A DNA stretch of 55,329 nucleotides, from the IMG/VR virus record IMGVR_UViG_3300012582_000006, positions 1-55,329 of that record; one strand, 5' to 3'. The translations under genes and the position numbers were made by a program. The notes under the pieces were generated by a model that made no database searches, had not been told where the DNA came from, and saw nothing but the letters and a program-made list of their open reading frames with translations. The stretch is from a virus. Of this stretch, positions 1,374 to 20,361 are shown in pieces. Each line of letters opens with the position of its first letter. The first letter of the stretch is position 1.

Positions 1374-1529
1374 TTGGTTTACCTATTTTTGAAACAGCCG
1401 AGACGGTTGCCTGTCTTTGTAAAATATGTTGAGTCGCTTGGTGCCGATCCAATAGATGTTATTCGGGCTTTCAGATACAGGGATCTGCTGGATGAAGGGA
1501 AGGATGGATGGCTGACGTTGGCAAAGTAA
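1374..1529 (+). CDS. Small helical protein of unknown function (start uncertain)
   Basis: The protein-like part begins at TTG 1374 (LVYLFLKQPRRLPVF) and ends at 1529, overlapping the next gene by 22 bases. The frame extends upstream to an ATG at 1242, but that stretch lies inside the zinc protein in another frame and looks like non-coding noise. No good Shine-Dalgarno precedes the TTG, so initiation may depend on coupling to the upstream gene. The mixed helical pattern resembles a small winged-helix or helical adaptor. I do not recognise the family. Confidence 0.45.
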   Translation: MVYLFLKQPRRLPVFVKYVESLGADPIDVIRAFRYRDLLDEGKDGWLTLAK

Positions 1530-2533
1530 AGAAGAAAGAAGCGAAGCTACAGTTGGCGAACGGACCTGTTCCGAAGTTGGTGTTGCAATCATCCGAGAAA
1601 CCCATCGTGTATTTGTCCCATTCGATTGTTCATACGAAAGAGTTGGAGAACGAGTTTCTGGATTGCACGGGTGTACGGTATAGGTGTTGTTCGTTCGTAT
1701 ATCTACATCCGGATGCGATCTATTGGACTCCGAGGGCTTGGGCGGGGTACAAGGTAAACGTGGAGCGCGGAAATCATATCATGATGGATTCGGGTGCGTT
1801 CTCGTTTCAGATGTTCTTATTCAAGCATCAGGAAATCCCAAACGTCGATAAGTTGAGGAGTAAGACTATCGAGATGTACGTGGAGTTTTGTAAGAAGAGA
1901 TCAAAGGATTGGGATTTCTACGTAACGTTCGATTACGTCAGGGACGTGGAAGTGGTTTGGCGTGTGACGAAAGAGCTTGAGAAGCAAGGATTGAAACCGG
2001 TTCCGGTGTATCATGGTGATGCGTCGTTGGATTGGATTAAGAAATATCTGGACGCTGGTTACAAGAGAATTGGATGTTCGCCTCTCCTGGGTGTGCGGTC
2101 GAGTCATAAGAATCTGAGATTCTATCTTGACAATCTGTTTAGAACGGTTGAACCATACAAGGTGAAACTGCATGGGTTTGCGATGACTTCCTTGTCAACG
2201 ATGTTTGCCTATCCGTGGGATAGCGTGGATAGTTCTTCCTGGTCGAGGACTTCGTCGTACGGTTGCATCTACGTGGTGGATGTTGGAAAGAACACGATGG
2301 GAACGGTTCACGTATCTTTGGAGTCTGCTTCGAATCCGAATTCCTTTTCCACGTTGGCAAAAGAATCTCAAAAGGCGATCGTAGATCAGGTGGAGAAGCG
2401 CGGTTTCGATTTCAAACGTTTGAGAGAGTCGGTGACGTACCGGCACGTATACAATGGGTGGTTATTTTCACACTTGGATCAGTTCAAAAAACAGATTAGA
2501 GATACACACGTTCGGTATCAGCATCTGCTGTAG
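1508..2533 (+). CDS. dpdA: DpdA-type 7-deazaguanine DNA transferase (TGT-like)
   Basis: A 341-residue TIM-barrel protein of the queuine tRNA-ribosyltransferase superfamily, phage DpdA branch. Visible motifs are MMDSGAFS (residues 92-99, with the catalytic-type Asp 94), FYVTFDYV, PVYHGD, RIGCSPL, and a second acidic segment PWDSVDSSSW at about 236-245 where TGT enzymes carry the nucleophile. The C-terminal zinc site of tRNA enzymes is not apparent. DpdA enzymes swap guanine in DNA for a preQ0-derived base and protect phage DNA from restriction. The folE gene three genes downstream feeds the same pathway, supporting DNA rather than tRNA as substrate. The exact modified base cannot be told from this window. 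Confidence 0.8.
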   Translation: MADVGKVKKKEAKLQLANGPVPKLVLQSSEKPIVYLSHSIVHTKELENEFLDCTGVRYRCCSFVYLHPDAIYWTPRAWAGYKVNVERGNHIMMDSGAFSFQMFLFKHQEIPNVDKLRSKTIEMYVEFCKKRSKDWDFYVTFDYVRDVEVVWRVTKELEKQGLKPVPVYHGDASLDWIKKYLDAGYKRIGCSPLLGVRSSHKNLRFYLDNLFRTVEPYKVKLHGFAMTSLSTMFAYPWDSVDSSSWSRTSSYGCIYVVDVGKNTMGTVHVSLESASNPNSFSTLAKESQKAIVDQVEKRGFDFKRLRESVTYRHVYNGWLFSHLDQFKKQIRDTHVRYQHLL

Positions 2534-2542
2534 GTGATCGTT

Positions 2543-2836
2543 ATGACATGGCGCGTGAAAAGAAAGTGCGACGATTGTCCTTTCTCGGTTAGTGGGGCTG
2601 GTTTGAGATTAAGGAAGTCACTTGGGAGAGGACGTTGGAATGAGATCTTAGCTAGTCTTAGAATCGATTCTGGTTTTCCTTGTCATAAGACTACGGTATT
2701 TGACGAAGAGGGTGATGCGGTACAAGGGACTGGTTTGCAATGTGCTGGGGCACTTGCTTGGCAAAGAAAACACAACGGGTGTGTAGGTCAGTTGGCTAGG
2801 ATCATGGAACGTTTGGATTACGCGAGGAAATTGTGA
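2543..2836 (+). CDS. Cysteine-rich small protein, DUF6283-like
   Basis: A 97-residue protein with CDDCPF near the N-terminus, a FPCHKTT motif at about residue 45-51 and LQCAGAL later: C-x2-C, then CH, then C, suggesting a bound metal. I recall this arrangement from DUF6283, a small family common in phages and actinobacteria, with no known function. ATG 2543 is preferred over GTG 2534 because AGGTGA lies 5 bases upstream. It overlaps folE by a GTGA junction, and its position between dpdA and folE suggests an accessory role in base modification; that is inference. Confidence 0.65.
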   Translation: MTWRVKRKCDDCPFSVSGAGLRLRKSLGRGRWNEILASLRIDSGFPCHKTTVFDEEGDAVQGTGLQCAGALAWQRKHNGCVGQLARIMERLDYARKL

Positions 2837-3495
2837 AAGACAGGATGATAGAGATGGCGAAAAGAAAAGAACAGATAAAGAAGAACGCCATTTTTGAGTT
2901 TCAGCTGGATGTGCAAAAGGCCGTGGCTTTGATATTGAATTCATTGGAACGGTGGACTGGCCAAAAAATCCATCGTCACGGTCCAAACTTCGAAGAGACA
3001 CCAGCTAGGGTTGCAAGGGCTTATACGGAAATCTTCGAAGGTCTCTTCGACAATGGGGATCAAGTAAAAGAAATTCTTTCCAAGACGTTTCCAGCGAAAG
3101 CCACGGAGATGGTAGTTGTTGGTCCGGTTGCGGTTTGGTCTATTTGTGCTCATCATTTGTTGCCAGTTGAGATGCGGGTGTGGTTAGGATATTTGCCGAA
3201 GAAAAGAGTGCTTGGGCTTTCGAAATTGGCTAGGCTGGCGGAGTTGGTAGCTAAGAAGCCTGGTTTGCAAGAGGATGCCACGATTGAGTTGGTAGACCTT
3301 TTGTATAAAGGTCTGAAACCGTCTGGTTGTGGCTGTTACATCAGAGGTAGGCACATGTGTATGGCTATGCGTGGTGTGAAGAGTAATGCAATTACGACTT
3401 CCAGTCAGCTTGTCGGTTCATTTTTGAAGGCTGAGATTCGCTCGGAATTCTTGGCTATGATTCGTGCGGATATTACCAAAGGAGATTGTTTGTGA
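2833..3495 (+). CDS. folE: GTP cyclohydrolase I (FolE)
   Basis: A 220-residue enzyme converting GTP to 7,8-dihydroneopterin triphosphate, the first step toward folate and toward preQ0 deazaguanines. Zinc ligands are visible as Cys105, His108 (CAHH) and Cys176 (HMCMAMRGV). The blocks GLSKLARL and QEDAT are also in place. One deviation is Ala106 where most enzymes have CEHH. GTG 2833 overlaps the previous stop as GTGA and has GAGGAA just upstream. In phages folE usually accompanies queD, queE and queC for preQ0 synthesis; those are not in this window. The pairing with dpdA argues for DNA modification rather than folate supply. Confidence 0.9.
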   Translation: MKDRMIEMAKRKEQIKKNAIFEFQLDVQKAVALILNSLERWTGQKIHRHGPNFEETPARVARAYTEIFEGLFDNGDQVKEILSKTFPAKATEMVVVGPVAVWSICAHHLLPVEMRVWLGYLPKKRVLGLSKLARLAELVAKKPGLQEDATIELVDLLYKGLKPSGCGCYIRGRHMCMAMRGVKSNAITTSSQLVGSFLKAEIRSEFLAMIRADITKGDCL

Positions 3496-3872
3496 GGTGG
3501 AAGGAAATTTACGGAGGCTTGTATCTTCTTTCTGAAAAGGGTGATGTTAGGAACAATTTTCCTCTATCGAGAAGATGTAGACATGACTATAGAGGTAGAC
3601 TTTTAATTCCTTATGTAACGAAGAAGGGATACCTTAGGTTGGAAGTTAGTCCGGATAGGAAGGGTGTTGCTGTTCTTGTTCATAATTTGGTGGCGAAGGT
3701 TTTTGTCGGTCCAAGGCCAAAGGGTAAAGAGGTTAATCACAAGGATACGAACAAGTTGAATAACTGGTATTGGAATTTGGAGTACCTTACGCATGCGGAA
3801 AACATTCGACATGCAGTTGCGCATGGCTTGTACGGTAAAAAGAAAAGAGAAAGAAATGGACAAAATACTTGA
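3492..3872 (+). CDS. HNH homing endonuclease (NUMOD4-HNH), C-terminally short
   Basis: A 126-residue free-standing endonuclease. Residues 1-20 (RWKEIYGGLYLLSEKG) look like a NUMOD4 DNA-recognition motif. The HNH core reads VHNLVAKVFVG, then EVNHKDTNKLNN and NLEYLTHAEN. The related gene at 36944-37450 continues past the shared ERNG into a helix-turn-helix tail, whereas this copy stops there, right over the start of the next gene at 3856. GTG 3492 overlaps the folE stop (GTGA) and has AGGAG 7 bases upstream. Codon use is more A/T-rich than its neighbours, as expected for a mobile gene. Confidence 0.85.
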   Translation: MRWKEIYGGLYLLSEKGDVRNNFPLSRRCRHDYRGRLLIPYVTKKGYLRLEVSPDRKGVAVLVHNLVAKVFVGPRPKGKEVNHKDTNKLNNWYWNLEYLTHAENIRHAVAHGLYGKKKRERNGQNT

Positions 3873-5917: not shown

Positions 5918-7819
5918 ATGGCTTACCAGAATTTGCTACATTTTGATGACGACACGAAAGCCTTCGAAGTGGTGCCTGAGAAGGGTCAGAAGAAGGAAAA
6001 GAAAAAGGCTGTGTCGAAGAAGGATCAGAATAGAGGTTGCGACTTTTGTCCGCTGAACAAAGTGAAGGGTTTGAAGAAGGTAAAAAATCTAGATAAGCTC
6101 AGAGGCAAAGAGATCATGGTCTGGGCACAGAATCCTGGGGAAGAGGAAAATAGACAAGGAAAGGAACTGGTTGGTCCAGCAGGTCAGTTTCTTTGGGAGC
6201 ATGCGGAATCGGTTGGGTTGAAGAGAGAAGATTGCGACATACAGAACGTGGTCCGATGTTGGACGATATCGGAAAATGAGTTTGGTCAGTGGGAGCCGAG
6301 GAGTCCTTCGAAAGAGGAATTACATTGTTGTTCGATCTATACCGAAGAGGCTTTAGAGAAGACTTATGGTAAAACAAAGGTGCATATCGTCTTCGGTCAG
6401 GTGGCAGCGAAGGTCTTGTTGAAGGGAGAGTATCGGAAGGACCAGAAGACATTTTTTTCTGAGAAGTTAAAGGCTTGGGTGATTTTGACCTATCATCCGA
6501 GTTACTTCCTGCGTGGGGCTCCGCGTTCCAAAATTCAGGAGTTCTTGGAGGCATTGGCAACGGCAGTGGCAAAAGTGAAAGGCGGAACTGGTAGGTTCAC
6601 GTATATCGAGAGGCAGGATTACAAATCGGTTCCAACAAGAGATTTGAAGGTGGAAATAGAAGATCCGATAAGAGAGGTAGCCTCGAAAGGAATTGTGACA
6701 TCGGTGGATATCGAGGATGGCACGAATGATAAAGGTGAGAATGTAATCGTGTACGTCGGGTTCTCTTGGAAGAAGGGGCATTCAAGAGGGGTGTTCTTCG
6801 ATCACCGGGATTTGAAAAATTCTCCGGAAGAGCAACAAGCAAAGTTTCATGTTGTGTCCGGAATTATTACCGATCCAAATATTCCTAAAGCATTGCAGAA
6901 CGGTGTGTATGATGTGTGGAAGTTCTTGAAGTTGTGGTCGTTGAAGGTGAAGGGCTTCGTACATGATACGATGTTCTCTGAGTATTTGAGATACTCCGGT
7001 CGAAAGGCCTATGGTCTGGAAGCGATCTCGGATATTCGATTCAGGGAGTTTGCTGGGTACAAAGGAATTCTTGATCCGTATCGTGATCCGAAGACTGGAT
7101 TGGTGAATTTTTGGACCGTTCCAATGAAGGTAATCCGGGTGTATAACGGTGCGGATTGTGATCTGACCAAAAGAATTCAACGCGACAACAAAGGAAAGGT
7201 GAACGAGTCGCTCCTGAAAGTTTTGATTCTTGTGGCGCCGGTGTTGGCGAAGATGGAAATAGAGAGTGGTCCACTTTTGGATTTCGAGCATGCGGATTTG
7301 TTGGATCGGTGGTTACCGGTACGATTGGAGTCTTTGCTGAAGGAGCTTCGTCATCTTGCCGATAACAAGAAGTTCAATCCGAATTCGACGCCGCAAGTGG
7401 TTGAGATCATCTACGACAAGTTGAAGCTTGGAAAATATCTGGACGTGGAATGGAAACGAGATTATCCCAGGTCGACGAACAAAGAGACGATGTTGCTGTT
7501 GGAATCTTTCCACGCCTTTCCAAAGAGGATGCAGGAGTACAGGAAGCTAGCAAAGAAGAAATCAACGTATTTGGATGCCTATCGGAAATCAGCGACTCTT
7601 CACGAAGGTCGTGTCAGGACAAAGTGGTGGTTGACTGGAACGATTACCTGTCGGTTGCGGTCTGGTGGTGAAAAGATAAAAAAGAAAGGGGAAGAGTCGG
7701 ACAAGGAAAAAGGGATCGTGAATCTGCAAAATATCCACGGGGCGGAGGAGATTGAGTGTTTGCTGGTGTCGGATATGAGATGGCGTGAGTTGTACAAAGA
7801 ATGGAGAGAACAACAATGA
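5918..7819 (+). CDS. UDG + 3'-5' exonuclease + N-terminal half of family A DNA polymerase
   Basis: A 633-residue multidomain protein. Residues 40-220 form a family-4-like iron-sulfur uracil-DNA glycosylase: Cys41, Cys44, Cys114 and Cys137/138 in the spacing expected for the cluster, the PGEEENRQGKELVGPAGQ motif and TYHPSYFLR. Residues about 255-430 are a DnaQ-type proofreading exonuclease (SVDIED with Asp264 and Glu266, NGVYD, YNGADCDL). The rest is polymerase I thumb and early palm: FNPNSTPQ, KKKSTYLDAY, TITCRLRS and NLQNIH. It then stops, before motif A. The missing palm and fingers are encoded at 9051-9947, so the polymerase is split over two chains with three genes between. Confidence 0.9.
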   Translation: MAYQNLLHFDDDTKAFEVVPEKGQKKEKKKAVSKKDQNRGCDFCPLNKVKGLKKVKNLDKLRGKEIMVWAQNPGEEENRQGKELVGPAGQFLWEHAESVGLKREDCDIQNVVRCWTISENEFGQWEPRSPSKEELHCCSIYTEEALEKTYGKTKVHIVFGQVAAKVLLKGEYRKDQKTFFSEKLKAWVILTYHPSYFLRGAPRSKIQEFLEALATAVAKVKGGTGRFTYIERQDYKSVPTRDLKVEIEDPIREVASKGIVTSVDIEDGTNDKGENVIVYVGFSWKKGHSRGVFFDHRDLKNSPEEQQAKFHVVSGIITDPNIPKALQNGVYDVWKFLKLWSLKVKGFVHDTMFSEYLRYSGRKAYGLEAISDIRFREFAGYKGILDPYRDPKTGLVNFWTVPMKVIRVYNGADCDLTKRIQRDNKGKVNESLLKVLILVAPVLAKMEIESGPLLDFEHADLLDRWLPVRLESLLKELRHLADNKKFNPNSTPQVVEIIYDKLKLGKYLDVEWKRDYPRSTNKETMLLLESFHAFPKRMQEYRKLAKKKSTYLDAYRKSATLHEGRVRTKWWLTGTITCRLRSGGEKIKKKGEESDKEKGIVNLQNIHGAEEIECLLVSDMRWRELYKEWREQQ

Positions 7820-8055
7820 GTGAAAAGCATGTAACGTTCCTCAGGAACGAACCAAAGTCAAAAGTGGAGCTTCTAATTGTGAAAGATGGGTGGTTGCCAC
7901 TGACAGCTAATGGTGAAGATTTGGAGATGGTTCAAGATGCTTACGTTATAAGAGTATGGTCGTTAAGGGCACCATCTGGTGAGGCTCGTGTAAACGAGAT
8001 TAGGTTGAGGGCAAGTGAGATGAGCGTGTTGATGCATTCGGTGGAGGAGAAATGA
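7816..8055 (+). CDS. Small protein of unknown function between polymerase halves
   Basis: A 79-residue protein (starts MSEKHVTFLRNEPKSK). ATG 7816 overlaps the stop of the polymerase N-terminal gene (ATGA) and its own end overlaps the dCTP deaminase start in the same way. It has alternating strands (KVELLIVKDGW, YVIRVWSLR), suggesting a small beta-rich fold. No family is recognised. It lies within the insertion that separates the two polymerase genes. Confidence 0.7.
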   Translation: MSEKHVTFLRNEPKSKVELLIVKDGWLPLTANGEDLEMVQDAYVIRVWSLRAPSGEARVNEIRLRASEMSVLMHSVEEK

Positions 8056-8573
8056 TCCTCAGTGGACGAGACTTGAAATTGTATATCGATATAGGAAAAT
8101 TGGTAATCGATCCGGTAACACCAGAACAGTTCCAGCAGAACGGTATAGATTTGGTTCTTGAAGAAATTTCGTATATGTCTGGGCCCTTTTGGCTTGGATG
8201 TACGAGAGAAGTATTAGAAATGCCAGATGATCTGATGGCCTTTGTGGAACTCAGGAGTTCGTGGGCTAGACAAGGATTCTTTTTGCCACCGACGATTGTG
8301 GATGCAGGATTCAAAGGAAATTTGACTTTGGAAATGCTGGCCTTTATGGAGCATCCAAAGGAAGCGCTTGGAAGACGGTTTGCTCATTTGATCTTTGCCA
8401 AGACGTCTAGTCCATGTGAAAAATATCAAGGTATGTATTCTGGTCAGCGCGGGATTACACCATCAAAACTGAAGTCAGAATCTAAAGGTCACGTCACGCC
8501 TGATGAAATACTAAGATCACACGGTTATGATCCAGATGAGATTAGAAGGTTGAGTAAAGGAGGAGAAGAATGA
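8052..8573 (+). CDS. dcd: dCTP deaminase
   Basis: A 173-residue member of the dCTP deaminase/dUTPase trimer family. Motifs: LRSSWARQGF (residues 67-76), VDAGFKGNLTLEM (83-95) with the catalytic-type Glu94 that distinguishes deaminases from plain dUTPases, RFAHLIF and YSGQRGITPSK with Gln132. It makes dUTP (or dUMP if bifunctional) from dCTP for dTMP synthesis, completed by ThyX at 21182. The UDG domain next door makes tight control of uracil in DNA plausible. ATG 8052 overlaps the preceding stop. Confidence 0.85.
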   Translation: MILSGRDLKLYIDIGKLVIDPVTPEQFQQNGIDLVLEEISYMSGPFWLGCTREVLEMPDDLMAFVELRSSWARQGFFLPPTIVDAGFKGNLTLEMLAFMEHPKEALGRRFAHLIFAKTSSPCEKYQGMYSGQRGITPSKLKSESKGHVTPDEILRSHGYDPDEIRRLSKGGEE

Positions 8574-9067
8574 GTTTCGTGTTGCAAGATTGGTTGGGGG
8601 ACCTTTCATTTATGCAACAGAGTGTGTTGCTGACGGCGATTCGTGGTGCGGATACGTTGCCGAAGAGACACATCAGTAAGTATCTTCTTAGGTGGTATCG
8701 TCGTTGTATTTTGACTTGTGCTTTTGAGAAAGTAGTGCACAAGACTCCGGACGAGCCTTGTACTGGAAATTTTACCGGTTCGGTTCCTATGGGATTGGAA
8801 GATTTGTGGCGGACGTACTTGCAAGACATAGATATGATTCTACATCATTTTCATTTGCACGTGTTGCATGCATCTGAGATACTCGGTTACAAGCATCCTG
8901 ATAGACCGATCAGGGAATGGTGGGCAATGTTTTACCATCAGGCGGTTAAGGATATGCACGTTCGTCCGGAGACAGAAGAAGAAATGGATAAGAGGTTGGG
9001 AGATAGTCGGGATCAATGGATGGAAGCTGGTGGACAGCACGAGGTTTGGCATGAGTCTGGCAAGTAA
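8570..9067 (+). CDS. Conserved-looking phage protein of unknown function
   Basis: A 165-residue protein (starts MSFVLQDWLGDLSFMQQ) containing IRGADTLPKRHISKYLLRWYRRC, typed here only in part, a segment I associate with uncharacterised phage proteins in replication modules. It is helical, rich in His and Trp, with HHFHLHVLHASE in the C-terminal half that could bind metal. GGAGG lies upstream of ATG 8570. It overlaps the polymerase C-terminal gene by 17 bases, so the two are probably translated together. Function unknown. Confidence 0.7.
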   Translation: MSFVLQDWLGDLSFMQQSVLLTAIRGADTLPKRHISKYLLRWYRRCILTCAFEKVVHKTPDEPCTGNFTGSVPMGLEDLWRTYLQDIDMILHHFHLHVLHASEILGYKHPDRPIREWWAMFYHQAVKDMHVRPETEEEMDKRLGDSRDQWMEAGGQHEVWHESGK

Positions 9068-9947
9068 GTACGCGGATCTTGATATCTATTTAGGTGCGGA
9101 CCATTCGCAATTGGAAATCCGCGTTCTTGCTCAGATGTCGAAAGATGTATTGCTGACAGAGTTGCTTCAGACGGGTGAGGATATTCATTCTTCTGTTGGT
9201 TACGAGTTGACGGCAATCCCAATCGAGAAGATAAAGAAAGATAGGGATATAAGGACAGCGATCAAAGGGATTCATTTTGGAATTATCTATGGTCTGACGG
9301 AAGAGACTTTGTATCTCAAGTTGAAAGCGGATGCGGCGGAGCGTGGTGAGCAGTTCAACATGACTCGTGAAGAGTTGGGCAAGATCTATAAGGGCTACTT
9401 TAGAAAGTTCAAGGGCGTGGCGGAGTTCATCGAGAAGCAGCATCAATTTGCCCAAGACAACGCTTATGTAATGAGCTTGTTTGGTTTTAGTAGGGAGATT
9501 GCAATAGCAGGAGATGAGACGAGGTCAACGTTTTGGGCGAATCAGGCTGTGAATACACCAATACAAGCTTCGGCACATCAGTTGATGTTGGTGGCGATGG
9601 CAATTTTGGGTTTGAAACAGAAGACGTATAGCTTGTTGCAACGGCCTTCGATGGAAGTACACGATTCGCTTTACGTGTTTGTGAAGCTGATGAAGTTGGC
9701 GGAAGCCTATAAACAATTCATCCAGCTCATGGAAAAAGAGATTTTGGTATATGTGAAGAAGTGGTGGCCGGAAGTGAACTGGGTGATTCCGTTGAAGGCC
9801 GAGGCGAAAGCTGGGTTGAGATTGGGTGTAATGGTTGAGTATAAAGGCGAGTCTCCGGAAGAGTTCATCGAAATGTGGTGTCAGAAGAATAAGAAGTTCG
9901 AGAAGAAACTGCGAGAGGAAATGAAGAAAGGATTGGCCAATGCGTAG
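9051..9947 (+). CDS. Family A DNA polymerase, palm/fingers half (separate gene)
   Basis: A 298-residue protein that begins just before motif A: GADHSQLEIR at residues 15-24 with catalytic Asp17. Motif B is Arg68, Lys72, Phe76 and Tyr80 in RTAIKGIHFGIIYG. Motif C is MEVHDSLY at 201-208 with catalytic Asp205, where Ser206 replaces the usual Glu, and His18 replaces the usual Tyr of motif A. ATG 9051 follows GAGGT by 6 bases. The upstream partner (5918-7819) supplies proofreading, thumb and NLQNI. No intein or intron ends are visible, so the two chains probably assemble noncovalently. Confidence 0.9.
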   Translation: MSLASKYADLDIYLGADHSQLEIRVLAQMSKDVLLTELLQTGEDIHSSVGYELTAIPIEKIKKDRDIRTAIKGIHFGIIYGLTEETLYLKLKADAAERGEQFNMTREELGKIYKGYFRKFKGVAEFIEKQHQFAQDNAYVMSLFGFSREIAIAGDETRSTFWANQAVNTPIQASAHQLMLVAMAILGLKQKTYSLLQRPSMEVHDSLYVFVKLMKLAEAYKQFIQLMEKEILVYVKKWWPEVNWVIPLKAEAKAGLRLGVMVEYKGESPEEFIEMWCQKNKKFEKKLREEMKKGLANA

Positions 9948-10886: not shown

Positions 10887-11939
10887 ATGGATAAGAAAGA
10901 ACTTGCTGCACAGAAGTTCAAGGAACGGACCGCTTCGAAACGTTTCAAGTTACCGGAAGGGAATACAACGTTTCGTGTGCTTCCGAACGCGAGGGGCCTT
11001 GACAAAGCGGAGTACATTGAGTACAGGATGCACTCCGGTGTAGGAGCTAGAAAATCCTATCTTCGGTGTGGAAAGAATATCCGCGGTGAGGGCGACTGTT
11101 GGTTGTGCGATACGTTGATTCCAAAGTTGGAGAAGTCGGGGAAGTCTTCACACAAGAGAGCGGCTGAGGAACTGAAAGCGAAAGAGAATTTCGCTGTTCA
11201 GATCATCTACAAGTCGGAAGGGAAGTGGATGGGTCCAACGCTGTGGGAAATGTCACCATCGGTTGCTAACAAGCTTTTGAATGTGATGAGCAGAAGGGAT
11301 GTCAGTCATCCGGAAAAGGGATACAATCTGACGATCTCTCGTCAGGGTACGACGATGACCTCGACGAAGTACGGGGACATTGATCGGGATGACGAAAAAT
11401 CTGAAGTGCCGGAGAAGCTTCTTTCGAAGTTGAAGCCCTTTGGTGAGATCCTTCGGAAGTATGACGAGAAGGTCATGAAGGCTGAGTACTACGGGCACGA
11501 GCAGGACGATGACGAACCGGAGGAGGAAGAAGAGGAGAAGAAGAAACCAAAAGACGAGGAAGAAGAAGAGAAGCCGAAACCAAAGAAACTAAAAAAGCCG
11601 GCTGAAGAAGAGGAGGAGGAAGAAAAAGAAGCCGAAGAGGAGGAGGAAGAAAAGCCAAAGCCGAAGAAGCCGAAGAAGGCGGATGCGGAAGAGGAGGAAG
11701 AGGAGTCTGAGTCTGAAGAGGATATTCCAGATCTGGAAGAAGAGGAAGAAGAGAAACCAAAGAAACCGAAAAAACCAAAGGAAGAAGAGGAGGAAGAAAG
11801 TGAGTCCGAAGAAGAGGAAGAAGAAAAACCCAAAAAACCAAAAAAGCCAGCTGCAGACGAAGAAGAAGAATCTGAAGAGGAAGAAGAGCCCAAGCCCAAA
11901 AAACCAAAGAAACCAAGACACGACGAAGACGACGAATGA
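10887..11939 (+). CDS. gp32-like ssDNA-binding protein with giant charged tail
   Basis: A 350-residue protein. Residues 1-205 look like a T4 gp32-type core: a basic N-terminus (KKELAAQKFKERTASKRFK), an OB-like region, and a Cys-rich zinc segment (RCGKNIRGEGDCWLCDTL). Residues about 207-350 are low complexity: runs of Glu broken by PKKPKK modules, ending RHDEDDE. SSB tails are normally short and acidic and recruit partners; this one is about 140 residues and mixed-charge. It sits between the UvsY-like gene and recA. AAAGGA precedes ATG 10887. Confidence 0.75.
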   Translation: MDKKELAAQKFKERTASKRFKLPEGNTTFRVLPNARGLDKAEYIEYRMHSGVGARKSYLRCGKNIRGEGDCWLCDTLIPKLEKSGKSSHKRAAEELKAKENFAVQIIYKSEGKWMGPTLWEMSPSVANKLLNVMSRRDVSHPEKGYNLTISRQGTTMTSTKYGDIDRDDEKSEVPEKLLSKLKPFGEILRKYDEKVMKAEYYGHEQDDDEPEEEEEEKKKPKDEEEEEKPKPKKLKKPAEEEEEEEKEAEEEEEEKPKPKKPKKADAEEEEEESESEEDIPDLEEEEEEKPKKPKKPKEEEEEESESEEEEEEKPKKPKKPAADEEEESEEEEEPKPKKPKKPRHDEDDE

Positions 11940-13744: not shown

Positions 13745-14647
13745 ATGTCGATAGAAGCAAGAGTGACGATGTTGATTGCGTTTGTGGTGTTGTTGCTTGT
13801 GGTGGTATTTGGTGTATTTGGTTGTACAAGAATTGGGGCTGGGCATGTTGGTATAGAGGTGAACCAGGCCGGTTCGCAGCGTGGTGTGCAGGACTTTACG
13901 ATAAGGACCGGATATGTCTTCTACAATCCATTGGCAACGACGATCGTAGAATATCCCACATTTGTACAGACGGCAATCTGGACGGCGAATCCACATGAAG
14001 GACATCCACAGAATGAAGAGATCACGTTTACGACAAAAGATTCAATGGTCGTGTCTGTAGACGTGAATCTCAGCTATTCGTTATTGGCGGAAAAAGTACC
14101 AGCATTCTATGTGAAGTTCAGGTCGGATGATCTGGATATGTTTACGCACGGGTTTTTGAGGAACGTGGCGAGGGATTGTTTCAACGAGGTTGCTGGTAAG
14201 TATGCAGTGGAACAGATTATGGGTGACAACGCTCCGTTTTTGCGTGATGCCAGAAGTTGCTTGCAGAATCAAGTAGCAGACATCGGTGTGCATATAGAAC
14301 AGTTTGGGATCATCGGTGCGCCGAGACCGCCGCAAGGAGTGATTGATTCGATTAACGCGAAAGTACAGGCTGGTCAGATTGCTTTGCAGAAGAGGAACGA
14401 AGTGTTGCAGGCTGAGGCCGAAGCTGCGAAGACCGTTGCTTATGCCGAGGGTGAAGCAAAAGCTATGGTAACGAGGGCAGAAGGTCAGGCGAAATCAAAC
14501 AGACTTATTAGCGAAAGTTTGACGGATAAGGTTCTAGAGAGAACCAGATTGGATTTGCAATGGCATTGGATCGATAAGTGGAACGGACAGAGGCCGAGTG
14601 TTGAGTCAACCGCGGGTGGAGGGATGTTGATTCAGGTTCCAAAGTAA
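13745..14647 (+). CDS. SPFH/band 7 membrane protein
   Basis: A 300-residue protein with an N-terminal membrane anchor (LIAFVVLLLVVVFGVFGC; the Cys could alternatively mark a lipobox) followed by an SPFH domain (GAGHVGIEVNQ, TFTTKDSMVVSVDVNLSY) and an Ala/Glu-rich coiled coil (VLQAEAEAAKTVAYAEGEAK). SPFH proteins (stomatin, HflK/C, prohibitin) form oligomeric cages that organise membranes and control proteases such as FtsH. A phage copy might protect phage proteins or organise replication at the membrane; this is inference. A GG-rich pentamer array begins directly after the stop. Confidence 0.8.
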   Translation: MSIEARVTMLIAFVVLLLVVVFGVFGCTRIGAGHVGIEVNQAGSQRGVQDFTIRTGYVFYNPLATTIVEYPTFVQTAIWTANPHEGHPQNEEITFTTKDSMVVSVDVNLSYSLLAEKVPAFYVKFRSDDLDMFTHGFLRNVARDCFNEVAGKYAVEQIMGDNAPFLRDARSCLQNQVADIGVHIEQFGIIGAPRPPQGVIDSINAKVQAGQIALQKRNEVLQAEAEAAKTVAYAEGEAKAMVTRAEGQAKSNRLISESLTDKVLERTRLDLQWHWIDKWNGQRPSVESTAGGGMLIQVPK

Positions 14648-17321: not shown

Positions 17322-17553
17322 GGTTAGGTGTGGTGAGGTGCGGTCGGCCGAGGTGTGGTCAGGTGAGCCTAGGTGCGGTTTGGTGTGGTAATGTCAGGCG
17401 TGGTCTGGTGCTGTAAGGTAAGCTCTGGTGAGGTACGGTGATGTAAGGTGCGGTTTGGCGGGGTAAGGTGATGTTAGGTTGGGCCCGGTACGGTGCTGTG
17501 AGGTTAGGTGTGGTATGGTCGGCTATGGCGAGGTAATGTGAGGTGTGGTGAGG
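17304..17553 (+). repeat. Degenerate pentanucleotide array C (50 units, YNNKG)
   Basis: The longest array: 50 units in 250 bases with no indel, starting inside the end of the upstream gene (TTTGG, TACGG, CGAGG, TGAGG containing its TGA stop) and ending TAATG, TGAGG, TGTGG, TGAGG, which contains the GTG start of the SbcDC gene. The final 25 bases differ from the end of array A at only two positions. The array thus bridges the stop of one gene and the start of the next. Confidence 0.9.
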
Positions 17554-20361
17554 ATTCTGATTACAAGTGACTGGCAGACAGATTATGAAAACCTTGAACT
17601 TTGTTCAAAGGCTGCGGAAGAAATTTTGCAGCTGAAGGAAGAGCATAGGTTCGAGGTTCTCATACATGCAGGAGACTTGAAGCGTCAGTACAATCCGATA
17701 GATGTTCGTATCGTAAACTTTTGGTTGAAGATGATTGGAAAGTGTCGGAAGGCTGGATTGGAAGTTTTCGTTAACCTTGGAAATCACGATCGGGTTGGGA
17801 TGCATGTTGATACACAAAATTGGTTGCCGGTGGTCAGAAAAGCCGGTGCGTTCGCTTATGATGAGCCGCAGCTTGTTGTGGGGTCGTTTACCGATCGTGG
17901 TGTCTCGATTCCACCGTTGGCATTTCTTCCCTTTAGAAACAATCCTGTTTTGTTGAAGCGTGAAGCTCATGATCTTGCTAAGAAAGCAAACGAGAACAGC
18001 ATTCTGATTTTCCATTGCGATTTGAAGAATGCTAGGTACAATGTGCTTTCTCGTTCTGCGGTTGATCTATCGGTTGAGGATCTGTATCCGGATAAGTACA
18101 TGTTCTGTGTTGGTGGTCATTTACACTTTCAGCATAAGGTAGCGGATAATATTTGGTATGTTGGTAGTCCATTCGCAATGGATTGGGGAGAAGCAAACCA
18201 GCGGAAGGGTTATTTGTTGATTGATACACTAAAGAAAACGATCAAGAGAATTCGCTCAAAGATTCCAGGATGGTACGATCCAAATTGGCCTGGATTTGAG
18301 GAGTCGAAGCCGGAGAGTTGGAAAGGGGCCAAGGTAAGGATCAAGGTTCCGTGCGATGGAGTTCAGCATGTTAGAGAGCTACTTGAAAAAGCACGGGTGG
18401 AAGCGGCTAAGAAATATGATGGAGCAGAGATTGTTACAGTTCCTGAATTTCGTGAGGCGGAGAGGGCTGAAGGGAAGATTAGATTGGGTCTTCCTGATGA
18501 AAAGAAAATCAGAATCTACGTACAAGAGACACTGCCGGATGAATTGAGAGGTTATGAATCGGCAATCAAGAAATATCTCGTGGAGCAGCTTTCACTTGTC
18601 GGTGGTTTGGAAAGGGAGCATGGGGAGCTAAAGTTTCTAAAGACACGGGCTAGAAACTTTCTTAGCTATGAGAAATTAGACTTTATATTTGAGCCAGGGC
18701 TTTGTGTGATAGCAGGAGAGAATAAAGATTGGAAGGGAAGGAGCAATGGAAGTGGGAAGACATCGGCATTGCAACCGATTGCAGTAACTTTATTTGGACA
18801 GACATTCAAAGGACAGAAGCATGATGGCTGGATGAGACGTGGTACGGATAAGAAGGAAGAGGTCTTTGCAAAAGTTTGGTTTCAGGATTCCCAAGGAAGA
18901 GCCTGTTGGGTCAATAGACCTAGGCAACCAAAAGAATCAAAGCTGAAGCTGGTAGTGGATGGTGATGTGGTAGAAAGCGGAAACAGACCGGAGAGTACGC
19001 AGAAGTTGATCGAGCAGGTAACCGGTTACACTTGGGAGACGCTTGCGAATGCAATCTACATCGATCAGTCGAAATCCCATTTGATGTTGACGGGAACGGA
19101 GTCGGAGCGAAAAGGATTTCTTGCCAAGTTACAAAACTTGGAAAGGTTCGAGCGGGCTGAGAAATCCGTCCGGGACCAAAAGAGCGACTTTGAGCGCCGC
19201 TACGAGTTGAATTCTGACCGTCTACAATCCGTTTTAACGGAGGAAAAGAACCTACTCGACACAATATCCCGTGCGAAGCGGATTTTAGCTCTAAACGCGT
19301 CTGTGTCGGTTTCTTACCGTCGCGTGAAACGACTGTTTTTGTCGAAAAAGGCTGAATTAGAGACTTGGGAAGCAAAAGCCGAGATGAACTTGACGTTACT
19401 TGACAAGGAGCTTGTTGAAATAGAAAAAGTAGACAAAGAAATGACTAAACAGTTGGCTTCAGTGGAAGAGAGATTGGATGTACTTAGGACCAGATTGTCG
19501 AAGTTCAAAAGAATGGAAGGTGTCTGTCCGACCTGCGAGCGTGTGATAGATGAGAAGGCAATTCAGTTGGCGATTCCGGAAATGGAAAAGAAAATACGTG
19601 GACTGGAAAAACAGGTCGAAGGTTTTGGGGGACTGGAATGGCAACGTAAGTCGCAGAGGAGAGGGCTCGAGAACAAAAAGATAAAGTGGCTCAGGAACAA
19701 AAGCTTGGCTGGTGAGGTTTCAGACCTGCAAGTGAGAATGGAAAAACTGAAGTTCGAGTGGCTTCAGTACAAGAGGCAGCAAGAGTTGATTGATGGCTTG
19801 CAGAAGCAGGTGAATCAGTGTAAGGAGCTTGGTAGTGGTTTGACTAGAAAGAAAATCAAGATCGGAAAATGGCTCAAGGTGCTGAAGTACTCTCAATCGG
19901 TATTCCAAAGAAACGGATTGCCTGCATCGTTGAATCAACAGATCTGTCCAGAATTGAATCAGGCGGCGGCGGAGTATGCTGAACTATTTGCTCAGAGAGA
20001 AATTCAGGTTCGGTTTGCTGTGGACGAAGAAGGAAGACTGGATGTGCGGGTGATTAATGCACACGGTGGTGAAGGGGTAGCGGATCAATCGGAAGGTGAA
20101 ATGAAAATGGCTTCGTTGATCACTTCCTTTGCGGTGAGATCGGTGGCACCGAAGACGAACATCCTGATTTTGGATGAGCCGGGTGACGGCTTGGATGCGA
20201 TTTCGGCAAGGAGTTTTGCTAGAGGGTTGAAGCAGGTGACGGATCGGTTCGGAAGTATTTTGTTGACGACTCATAATCCAGCAATCTTATCTGAGCTGGC
20301 GGATGCAAAGTTGGTGGTGGTCAGAAAAGAAAACGGGATAAGCGAGGTGGTCGATGGCTAG
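17548..20361 (+). CDS. Single-chain Mre11-Rad50 (SbcD-SbcC fusion)
   Basis: A 937-residue protein. Residues 1-340 are a calcineurin-type nuclease: TSDWQ (Asp8; Gln10 where His is usual), GDL at 42-44, GNHD at 78-81, a His in IFHCDL and GGHLH at 189-193. Residues 370-937 are an SMC-type ATPase: Walker A SNGSGKT at 399-405, a coiled coil with a zinc hook CPTC at 660-663, the signature region QSEGEMKM, Walker B LILDEP with Asp876/Glu877 and H-loop His909. The complex processes DNA ends and is normally two genes. GTG 17545 is an alternative start; both lie in the last repeat units. Confidence 0.9.
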   Translation: MRILITSDWQTDYENLELCSKAAEEILQLKEEHRFEVLIHAGDLKRQYNPIDVRIVNFWLKMIGKCRKAGLEVFVNLGNHDRVGMHVDTQNWLPVVRKAGAFAYDEPQLVVGSFTDRGVSIPPLAFLPFRNNPVLLKREAHDLAKKANENSILIFHCDLKNARYNVLSRSAVDLSVEDLYPDKYMFCVGGHLHFQHKVADNIWYVGSPFAMDWGEANQRKGYLLIDTLKKTIKRIRSKIPGWYDPNWPGFEESKPESWKGAKVRIKVPCDGVQHVRELLEKARVEAAKKYDGAEIVTVPEFREAERAEGKIRLGLPDEKKIRIYVQETLPDELRGYESAIKKYLVEQLSLVGGLEREHGELKFLKTRARNFLSYEKLDFIFEPGLCVIAGENKDWKGRSNGSGKTSALQPIAVTLFGQTFKGQKHDGWMRRGTDKKEEVFAKVWFQDSQGRACWVNRPRQPKESKLKLVVDGDVVESGNRPESTQKLIEQVTGYTWETLANAIYIDQSKSHLMLTGTESERKGFLAKLQNLERFERAEKSVRDQKSDFERRYELNSDRLQSVLTEEKNLLDTISRAKRILALNASVSVSYRRVKRLFLSKKAELETWEAKAEMNLTLLDKELVEIEKVDKEMTKQLASVEERLDVLRTRLSKFKRMEGVCPTCERVIDEKAIQLAIPEMEKKIRGLEKQVEGFGGLEWQRKSQRRGLENKKIKWLRNKSLAGEVSDLQVRMEKLKFEWLQYKRQQELIDGLQKQVNQCKELGSGLTRKKIKIGKWLKVLKYSQSVFQRNGLPASLNQQICPELNQAAAEYAELFAQREIQVRFAVDEEGRLDVRVINAHGGEGVADQSEGEMKMASLITSFAVRSVAPKTNILILDEPGDGLDAISARSFARGLKQVTDRFGSILLTTHNPAILSELADAKLVVVRKENGISEVVDG

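What the first reader, a model, noticed from the sequence alone, without database searches (positions are those of the whole stretch)
5918..9947. Family A DNA polymerase split between NLQNI and motif A, with dcd and two genes in the gap
The UDG-exonuclease-polymerase protein stops shortly after NLQNIH, and the next residues needed for a polymerase (motif A onward) begin at 9051 in a separate gene with its own ribosome site. Three complete genes lie between. No intein, intron or homing endonuclease remains at the joint. The split falls exactly between conserved blocks, and both halves keep their catalytic residues, so a two-chain enzyme is likely.
Basis: partly seen in the sequence, partly recalled or inferred. 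Interest (0 to 1): 0.7.

Follow-up and report, generated by a model that had tools for sequence, protein, structure and literature searches.

The report
Phage DNA polymerase split into two genes
This phage encodes its DNA-copying enzyme as two separate proteins that very probably fit together; the break arose at least twice in the same linker in related viruses and the gap now holds a changing set of passenger genes, so it is a real and tidy variant of a known phenomenon rather than a new kind of system.

Summary
An N-terminal protein (5918-7819: type-4 uracil-DNA glycosylase, 3'-5' exonuclease, polymerase up to NLQNIH) and a C-terminal protein (9051-9947: motifs A, B, C) together cover one family A DNA polymerase. 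Three overlapping genes lie between: an 84-aa ORF, dcd and a 165-aa ORF. It is not an assembly error: six more contigs of the window's lineage have the same split with different gap genes, while 30 related phages in the tree keep one fused UDG-exo-pol protein. A second lineage (L008, L018, L031, L059, L068) split independently in the same linker (AU test p = 3e-56 against one origin). In L018 the halves touch as an ATGA stop/start overlap with nothing between; in L068 the only gap gene is a DUF559-type endonuclease. Both halves are under strong purifying selection. A predicted structure of an intact relative puts the break in a turn between two helices. Best reading: a two-chain polymerase assembled without a covalent bond; assembly itself was not tested. 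New variant of a known kind: cultured OM43 phages MEP401/402 have a published family A polymerase split in the equivalent linker, and T4-like phages have active split gp43 and NrdA.

The parts
5918..7819 (+). N-terminal polymerase chain: type-4 UDG domain, 3'-5' exonuclease, thumb and first palm part, ending ...NLQNIHGAEEIECLLVSDMRWRELYKEWREQQ*
   Evidence: Pfam UDG and DNA_pol_A N part; PHROG 17; alignment with relatives
6110..6556 (+). UDG domain, with four cysteines (C41, C44, C114, C138, the first two just before the Pfam match) and the HPS motif conserved
   Evidence: Pfam residues 65-213; best PDB matches are type-4 UDGs such as 1vk2; invariant columns
6698..7177 (+). 3'-5' exonuclease region (DIED, NGVYD, YNGADCD motifs)
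   Evidence: invariant D264, E266, D332, N410, D413; domain assigned from motifs, Pfam exo hit only in relatives
7721..7738 (+). NLQNIH block, last conserved block before the break region
7801..8055 (+). gap gene 1, 84 aa (probable start 7816, ATGA overlap with the N-half stop); no match in the other loci
8052..8573 (+). gap gene 2, dcd-like (dCTP deaminase/dUTPase fold), 173 aa; also in the gap of L001 and L002; directly downstream of the intact polymerase in L014
   Evidence: Pfam DCD
8570..9067 (+). gap gene 3, 165 aa, unknown; distant homologues in the gap of L001 and L003
9051..9947 (+). C-terminal polymerase chain: rest of palm, and fingers
   Evidence: Pfam DNA_pol_A profile 153-376; AlphaFold2 mean pLDDT 92.6; Foldseek to Bst/Klenow/Taq Pol I
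9099..9122 (+). motif A, DHSQLEIR
   Evidence: invariant D17, Q20, E22, R24
9252..9293 (+). motif B, RTAIKGIHFGIIYG
   Evidence: R68, K72, G81 conserved
9651..9668 (+). motif C, MEVHDS
   Evidence: H204, D205 invariant

Best explanation
The family A DNA polymerase of this uncultivated phage is made as two polypeptides, an N chain (UDG + proofreading exonuclease + thumb + first palm part) and a C chain (motif A to the C-terminus: palm and fingers), which fold together without a covalent bond into one active enzyme. The break lies in a turn between two helices of the linker between the NLQNI block and motif A. The ancestor was a single UDG-exo-pol protein of roughly 860-980 aa. A mutation in the linker left a stop codon next to a usable start, with translational coupling as still seen in L018. 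The stop/start junction then took up passenger genes (dcd, unknown genes, thyX, mazG, an endonuclease), which turn over while the halves stay. Shown: split, conservation, intact relatives, two origins, purifying selection, changing cargo. Inferred: assembly of the chains, activity, and the route by which the split arose (coupling first or endonuclease insertion first).
For: Complementary Pfam coverage 13-123 and 153-376 of DNA_pol_A. Same split with the same C-half start in L001, L002, L003, L004, L012, L013. Fused homologues in L005, L009, L014-L017, L019-L030 and others. AF2 of intact L014: mean pLDDT 91.4, pTM 0.89; the window-type break falls at residues 629-631 between helices 620-628 and 633-640. 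Window C half folds on its own with pLDDT 92.6 like Pol I. dN/dS L001-L002 about 0.06 for N and 0.02 for C; window-L001 third positions 41-45% identical against 76-79% amino-acid identity. No intron in Rfam. No second DNA polymerase among the 37 window proteins scanned. Two origins, AU p 2.6e-56. Precedent that such halves work: phage 25 gp43A/43B co-purify and have polymerase activity, Aeh1 split NrdA is active (PMC2988022).
Against: No biochemical test; the two chains were not modelled as a complex. Motif C has HDS instead of the usual HDE and motif A DHS instead of DYS, but intact relatives show HDS/HDA (L005, L009) and DHS (L014, L032), so these are clade features. The C-half-only tree nests intact L014/L032 inside the split clade with moderate support (0.86-0.92), which leaves room for a re-fusion or a C-half exchange.
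Confidence: 0.85

Rival explanations
1. The two parts are joined after transcription or translation, by a group I/II intron, a split intein, or ribosome bypassing, so that a continuous polymerase results.
For: Interruptions that splice are common in this gene: I-HmuI-type introns in SPO1-like phages at RLSSNEP^NAQQ, an HNH insertion in motif A of JA-1 that its authors call intron-like, a Hint/HNH intein in motif A of L008, intein-like insertions at QAVN|TPIQ in L032/L034/L036.
Against: No Rfam intron in the window. No intein sequence at either end; the C chain starts with a conserved start codon. The gap holds complete overlapping genes that differ between relatives. L018 has no gap at all, just ATGA.
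Confidence: 0.05
2. The polymerase is broken: a disrupted relic or an assembly artefact, with replication done by the host or another enzyme.
For: Gene disruption is the usual first guess for a two-piece gene.
Against: Same break in seven contigs of one clade and five of another. Both halves under purifying selection. Catalytic residues kept. No second polymerase among the proteins scanned, while clamp loader, ssDNA-binding protein, UvsX and SbcCD are present.
Confidence: 0.03
3. The halves work apart: the N chain as a free UDG-exonuclease repair protein, the C chain as a polymerase core with another partner.
For: The N chain carries complete UDG and exonuclease domains. C halves can be exchanged apart from N halves (L001-L002: C 99%, N 84% identical).
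Against: The N chain also keeps the thumb and the TG..R..NLQN palm part, which make no sense without motifs A-C and are still conserved; the C chain lacks a thumb.
Confidence: 0.07
4. On origin only (compatible with the two-chain reading): the split was made by insertion of a homing endonuclease gene into the linker, later replaced by other genes, as for mobE in nrdA.
For: L068 has one DUF559-type endonuclease as its only gap gene, with a PHROG match to homing endonucleases. L008 carries an HNH intein about 15 codons into the C half. The window has a free HNH_3 gene at 3486-3872.
Against: L018, in the same clade as L068, has no insert. L013, the deepest branch of the window's clade, has one 66-aa ORF of no known family.
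Confidence: 0.35

Closest known systems
Split family A DNA polymerase of OM43 phages MEP401/MEP402 (Zobellviridae; PMC10580990)
   Different: No UDG domain on the N chain, a different polymerase lineage, gap of one 77-aa ORF. The authors suggested an intron; nothing here requires one.
Split gp43 (family B) of T4-like Aeromonas phages 25 and 44RR, and split NrdA of Aeh1 (reviewed in PMC2988022)
   Same: Essential phage enzyme made of two chains from split genes; activity shown experimentally.
   Different: Other enzyme families; endonuclease genes or an untranslated spacer in the gap there, metabolic and unknown genes here.
SPO1-type UDG-exo-PolA (Herelleviridae gene 31 and relatives)
   Same: Same domain order in cultured phages (one-piece match to residues 62-580 of the N chain in Lysinibacillus phage LysYB1); best cultured match to the C chain, 29-30% identity.
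   Different: Where interrupted, it is by endonuclease-bearing introns at other sites, which splice (known for SPO1, from established knowledge) into one protein.
Fractured genes with split inteins (Dassa et al. 2009, known from citations in PMC6892783; the paper was not held)
   Same: Phage replication gene broken in two; in L068 an endonuclease gene sits between.
   Different: No intein halves at the break.

Membership tests
Family A DNA polymerase (PF00476) | Profile match over the polymerase domain with motifs A, B, C | tested here: met
   Two complementary matches above cut-off; D17/E22, R68/K72, H204/D205 invariant
Family A DNA polymerase (PF00476) | Polymerase activity | not testable with these tools
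   Needs biochemistry
Split (two-chain) phage polymerase | Two separate ORFs with own starts, complementary coverage, one-chain homologues exist | tested here: met
Split (two-chain) phage polymerase | The two chains form an active complex | not testable with these tools
   Only single-chain models possible; no assay
Fractured gene with split intein | Intein N and C parts at the broken ends | tested here: not met
   Ends align with intact relatives without extra sequence
Intron-interrupted polymerase (SPO1 type) | Group I intron between exons that restores one reading frame | tested here: not met
   No Rfam match at E up to 1; complete overlapping genes in the gap. Caution: at gathering threshold Rfam also reported no intron in the polymerase genes of the SPO1-type records, so gene anatomy is the stronger argument
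Type-4 uracil-DNA glycosylase | Four cysteines of the Fe-S site and the HPS motif | tested here: met
   C41, C44, C114, C138 and H193/P194 invariant; PDB best matches

The most novel reading that the evidence does not exclude
The linker is a selected fission point: separating the glycosylase-proofreading chain from the catalytic chain gives the phage something (free exchange of C halves, separate dosage of the chains, or removal of a target for homing elements), and the gap works as a docking site where co-expressed nucleotide-metabolism genes (dcd, thyX, mazG) are swapped.
Probability: 0.12. Interest if true: 0.65.

Novelty: new variant of a known kind. Interest (0 to 1): 0.45.

Why it matters
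It shows that a family A polymerase can be broken in one particular linker repeatedly (two lineages here, a third in MEP401-type phages) and stay under selection. That marks a natural split site for building two-part polymerases, and it gives a graded series (intact, ATGA split, endonuclease in the gap, metabolic genes in the gap) in which the origin of split genes can be studied.

Tried and rejected
Relatives in 84,980 bacterial/archaeal species genomes: none found, so no host or prophage context. Cultured phages: no close relative, best about 30% identity. Group I intron at the joint: none by Rfam; but Rfam at gathering threshold also found none in the SPO1-type polymerase genes, so that negative is weak alone. 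The idea that the window split sits at the SPO1 intron site was rejected: that intron lies just before NAQQ/NLQN, about 30 codons upstream. The idea that dcd in the gap explains the split was rejected: L003, L004, L012, L013 are split with no dcd there, and in intact L014 dcd lies downstream of the polymerase. An internal ribosome site in intact L014 (GGAGGA directly before the Met that aligns with the C-half start) was considered, but its spacing to the ATG is too short. A full IQ-TREE bootstrap run timed out after a thread error; FastTree and treekit quick were used instead. Searches were errors and gave nothing.

Full report
Observation. The window is a 55,329-base virus record from IMG/VR, classed linear. 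Between 5918 and 9947 five + strand genes overlap end to end: 5918-7819, 7801-8055, 8052-8573, 8570-9067, 9051-9947. Pfam finds a uracil-DNA glycosylase domain and positions 13-123 of the 381-position family A polymerase profile in the first, and positions 153-376 in the last. The protein at 8052-8573 is dCTP deaminase-like; the other two match no Pfam family. The catalytic residues are there: exonuclease DIED / YD / D and TG..R..NLQN in the N chain; D17 and E22 of motif A, R68 and K72 of motif B, H204 and D205 of motif C in the C chain. The glycosylase has the four cysteines of type-4 enzymes, and its best solved relatives are type-4 enzymes.

Gene anatomy. The N-chain stop codon overlaps an ATG (7816) as ATGA, and so do the next two junctions; the C-chain start overlaps the previous gene by 17 bases. 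In L001 the same N-chain tail (GAATGGAGAGAACAGCAATGA) leads straight into dcd, so the 84-aa gene of the window sits exactly at the stop/start junction. The C-chain start (M/V-S/T-L...) is at the same place in all seven members of the lineage.

Relatives. Viral contigs give six more phages with the same split: L001, L002, L003, L004, L012, L013. Their gaps hold different genes: dcd + 160 aa (L001), dcd + 120 aa (L002), 99 aa + 160 aa (L003), 188 aa (L004), 112 aa (L012), a 66-aa ORF (L013). Thirty others in the tree encode one continuous UDG-exo-polymerase; the closest, L014 and L032, are sister to the split clade on the concatenated tree. A second set, L008, L018, L031, L059, L068, is split in the same linker. 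In L018 the two halves overlap as ATGA with nothing between. L059 has one 64-aa gene, L031 three genes over 3 kb including a methylase-helicase protein, L008 thyX and mazG among others, and L068 a single DUF559-type endonuclease that also matches a homing-endonuclease PHROG. A single origin of all twelve splits is rejected (AU p 2.6e-56, quick tree, LG+G4); the tree needs two changes. FastTree trees of the N part place L031 with intact phages, so a third event is possible. Direction is inferred: family A polymerases are otherwise one chain.

Selection and exchange. Between L001 and L002 dN/dS is about 0.06 for the N chain and 0.02 for the C chain; dS is saturated for most other pairs, but third codon positions are only 41-45% identical (window-L001) while protein identity stays at 76-79%. 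The C chains of L001 and L002 are 99% identical while the N chains are 84%, and the gap gene between their nearly identical dcd end and C chain differs completely, with the change right after an ATGA. The gap is therefore a site of recent exchange. This may be ordinary phage mosaicism; I did not test whether it is more variable than other junctions in these genomes.

Structure. AlphaFold2 on intact L014 (mean pLDDT 91.4, pTM 0.89) places the window-type break at the turn 629-631 between helices 620-628 and 633-640, in a stretch with pLDDT about 98. The window's C chain alone gives pLDDT 92.6 and matches Bst, Klenow and Taq polymerase (best E 8.7e-18). A two-chain complex could not be modelled with the tools at hand.

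Alternatives. No Rfam intron was found at E up to 1, and neither broken end carries intein sequence. Known interruptions of this gene lie elsewhere: SPO1-type introns just before NLQN, the JA-1 insertion inside motif A, the L008 intein inside motif A, intein-like insertions at QAVN|TPIQ in L032, L034, L036. No second DNA polymerase was recognised among the 37 window proteins scanned; clamp loader, ssDNA-binding protein, UvsX-type recombinase and SbcCD are present. The record may be incomplete, so a polymerase outside it cannot be excluded.

Known things. A split family A polymerase is published for OM43 phages MEP401/402; reading their genes shows the break in the equivalent linker. Split family B polymerase gp43 and split NrdA are known and active (PMC2988022). 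The present case adds a UDG-bearing polymerase, two further origins, a stop/start-overlap form and changing cargo. Hence: new variant of a known kind, interest 0.45.

Shown here: the split, its conservation, its two origins, selection on both chains, cargo turnover, predicted structural location of the break. Inferred: that the chains assemble and are active; that coupling rather than an endonuclease came first.

Noticed in passing
window 3486-3872 +: Free-standing HNH_3 endonuclease gene (E 1.2e-11) about 2 kb upstream of the split polymerase.
   Followed up: partly
window 1508-2533 and 2833-3495 +: Queuine tRNA-ribosyltransferase-like protein (PHROG 887) and GTP cyclohydrolase I, hinting at 7-deazaguanine DNA modification.
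   Followed up: no
window 17545-20361 +: SbcD-like nuclease and SbcC-like ATPase fused in one 938-aa ORF; ORFs of similar size and start in L014 and L015.
   Followed up: no
L008:7104-8855 +: Polymerase C half with an intein (Hint_2 hit below cut-off, HNH_3) inserted inside motif A, in a phage whose polymerase is also split about 15 codons earlier.
   Followed up: partly
L032:4307-8089, L034:5907-9947, L035:185-3241, L036:6054-9962: Polymerases with a large intein-like insertion at QAVN|TPIQ; Pfam did not name it in L032 or L034.
   Followed up: partly
window 10887-11939 +: Single-strand binding protein with a long acidic E/K/P-rich repetitive tail.
   Followed up: no
window 13745-14647 +: SPFH/Band 7 membrane-type protein inside the replication gene cluster.
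   Followed up: no
L001:6903-7325 and L002:3848-4270: dcd is shortened to 145 aa where the gap gene changes right after an ATGA, compared with 173 aa in the window.
   Followed up: partly
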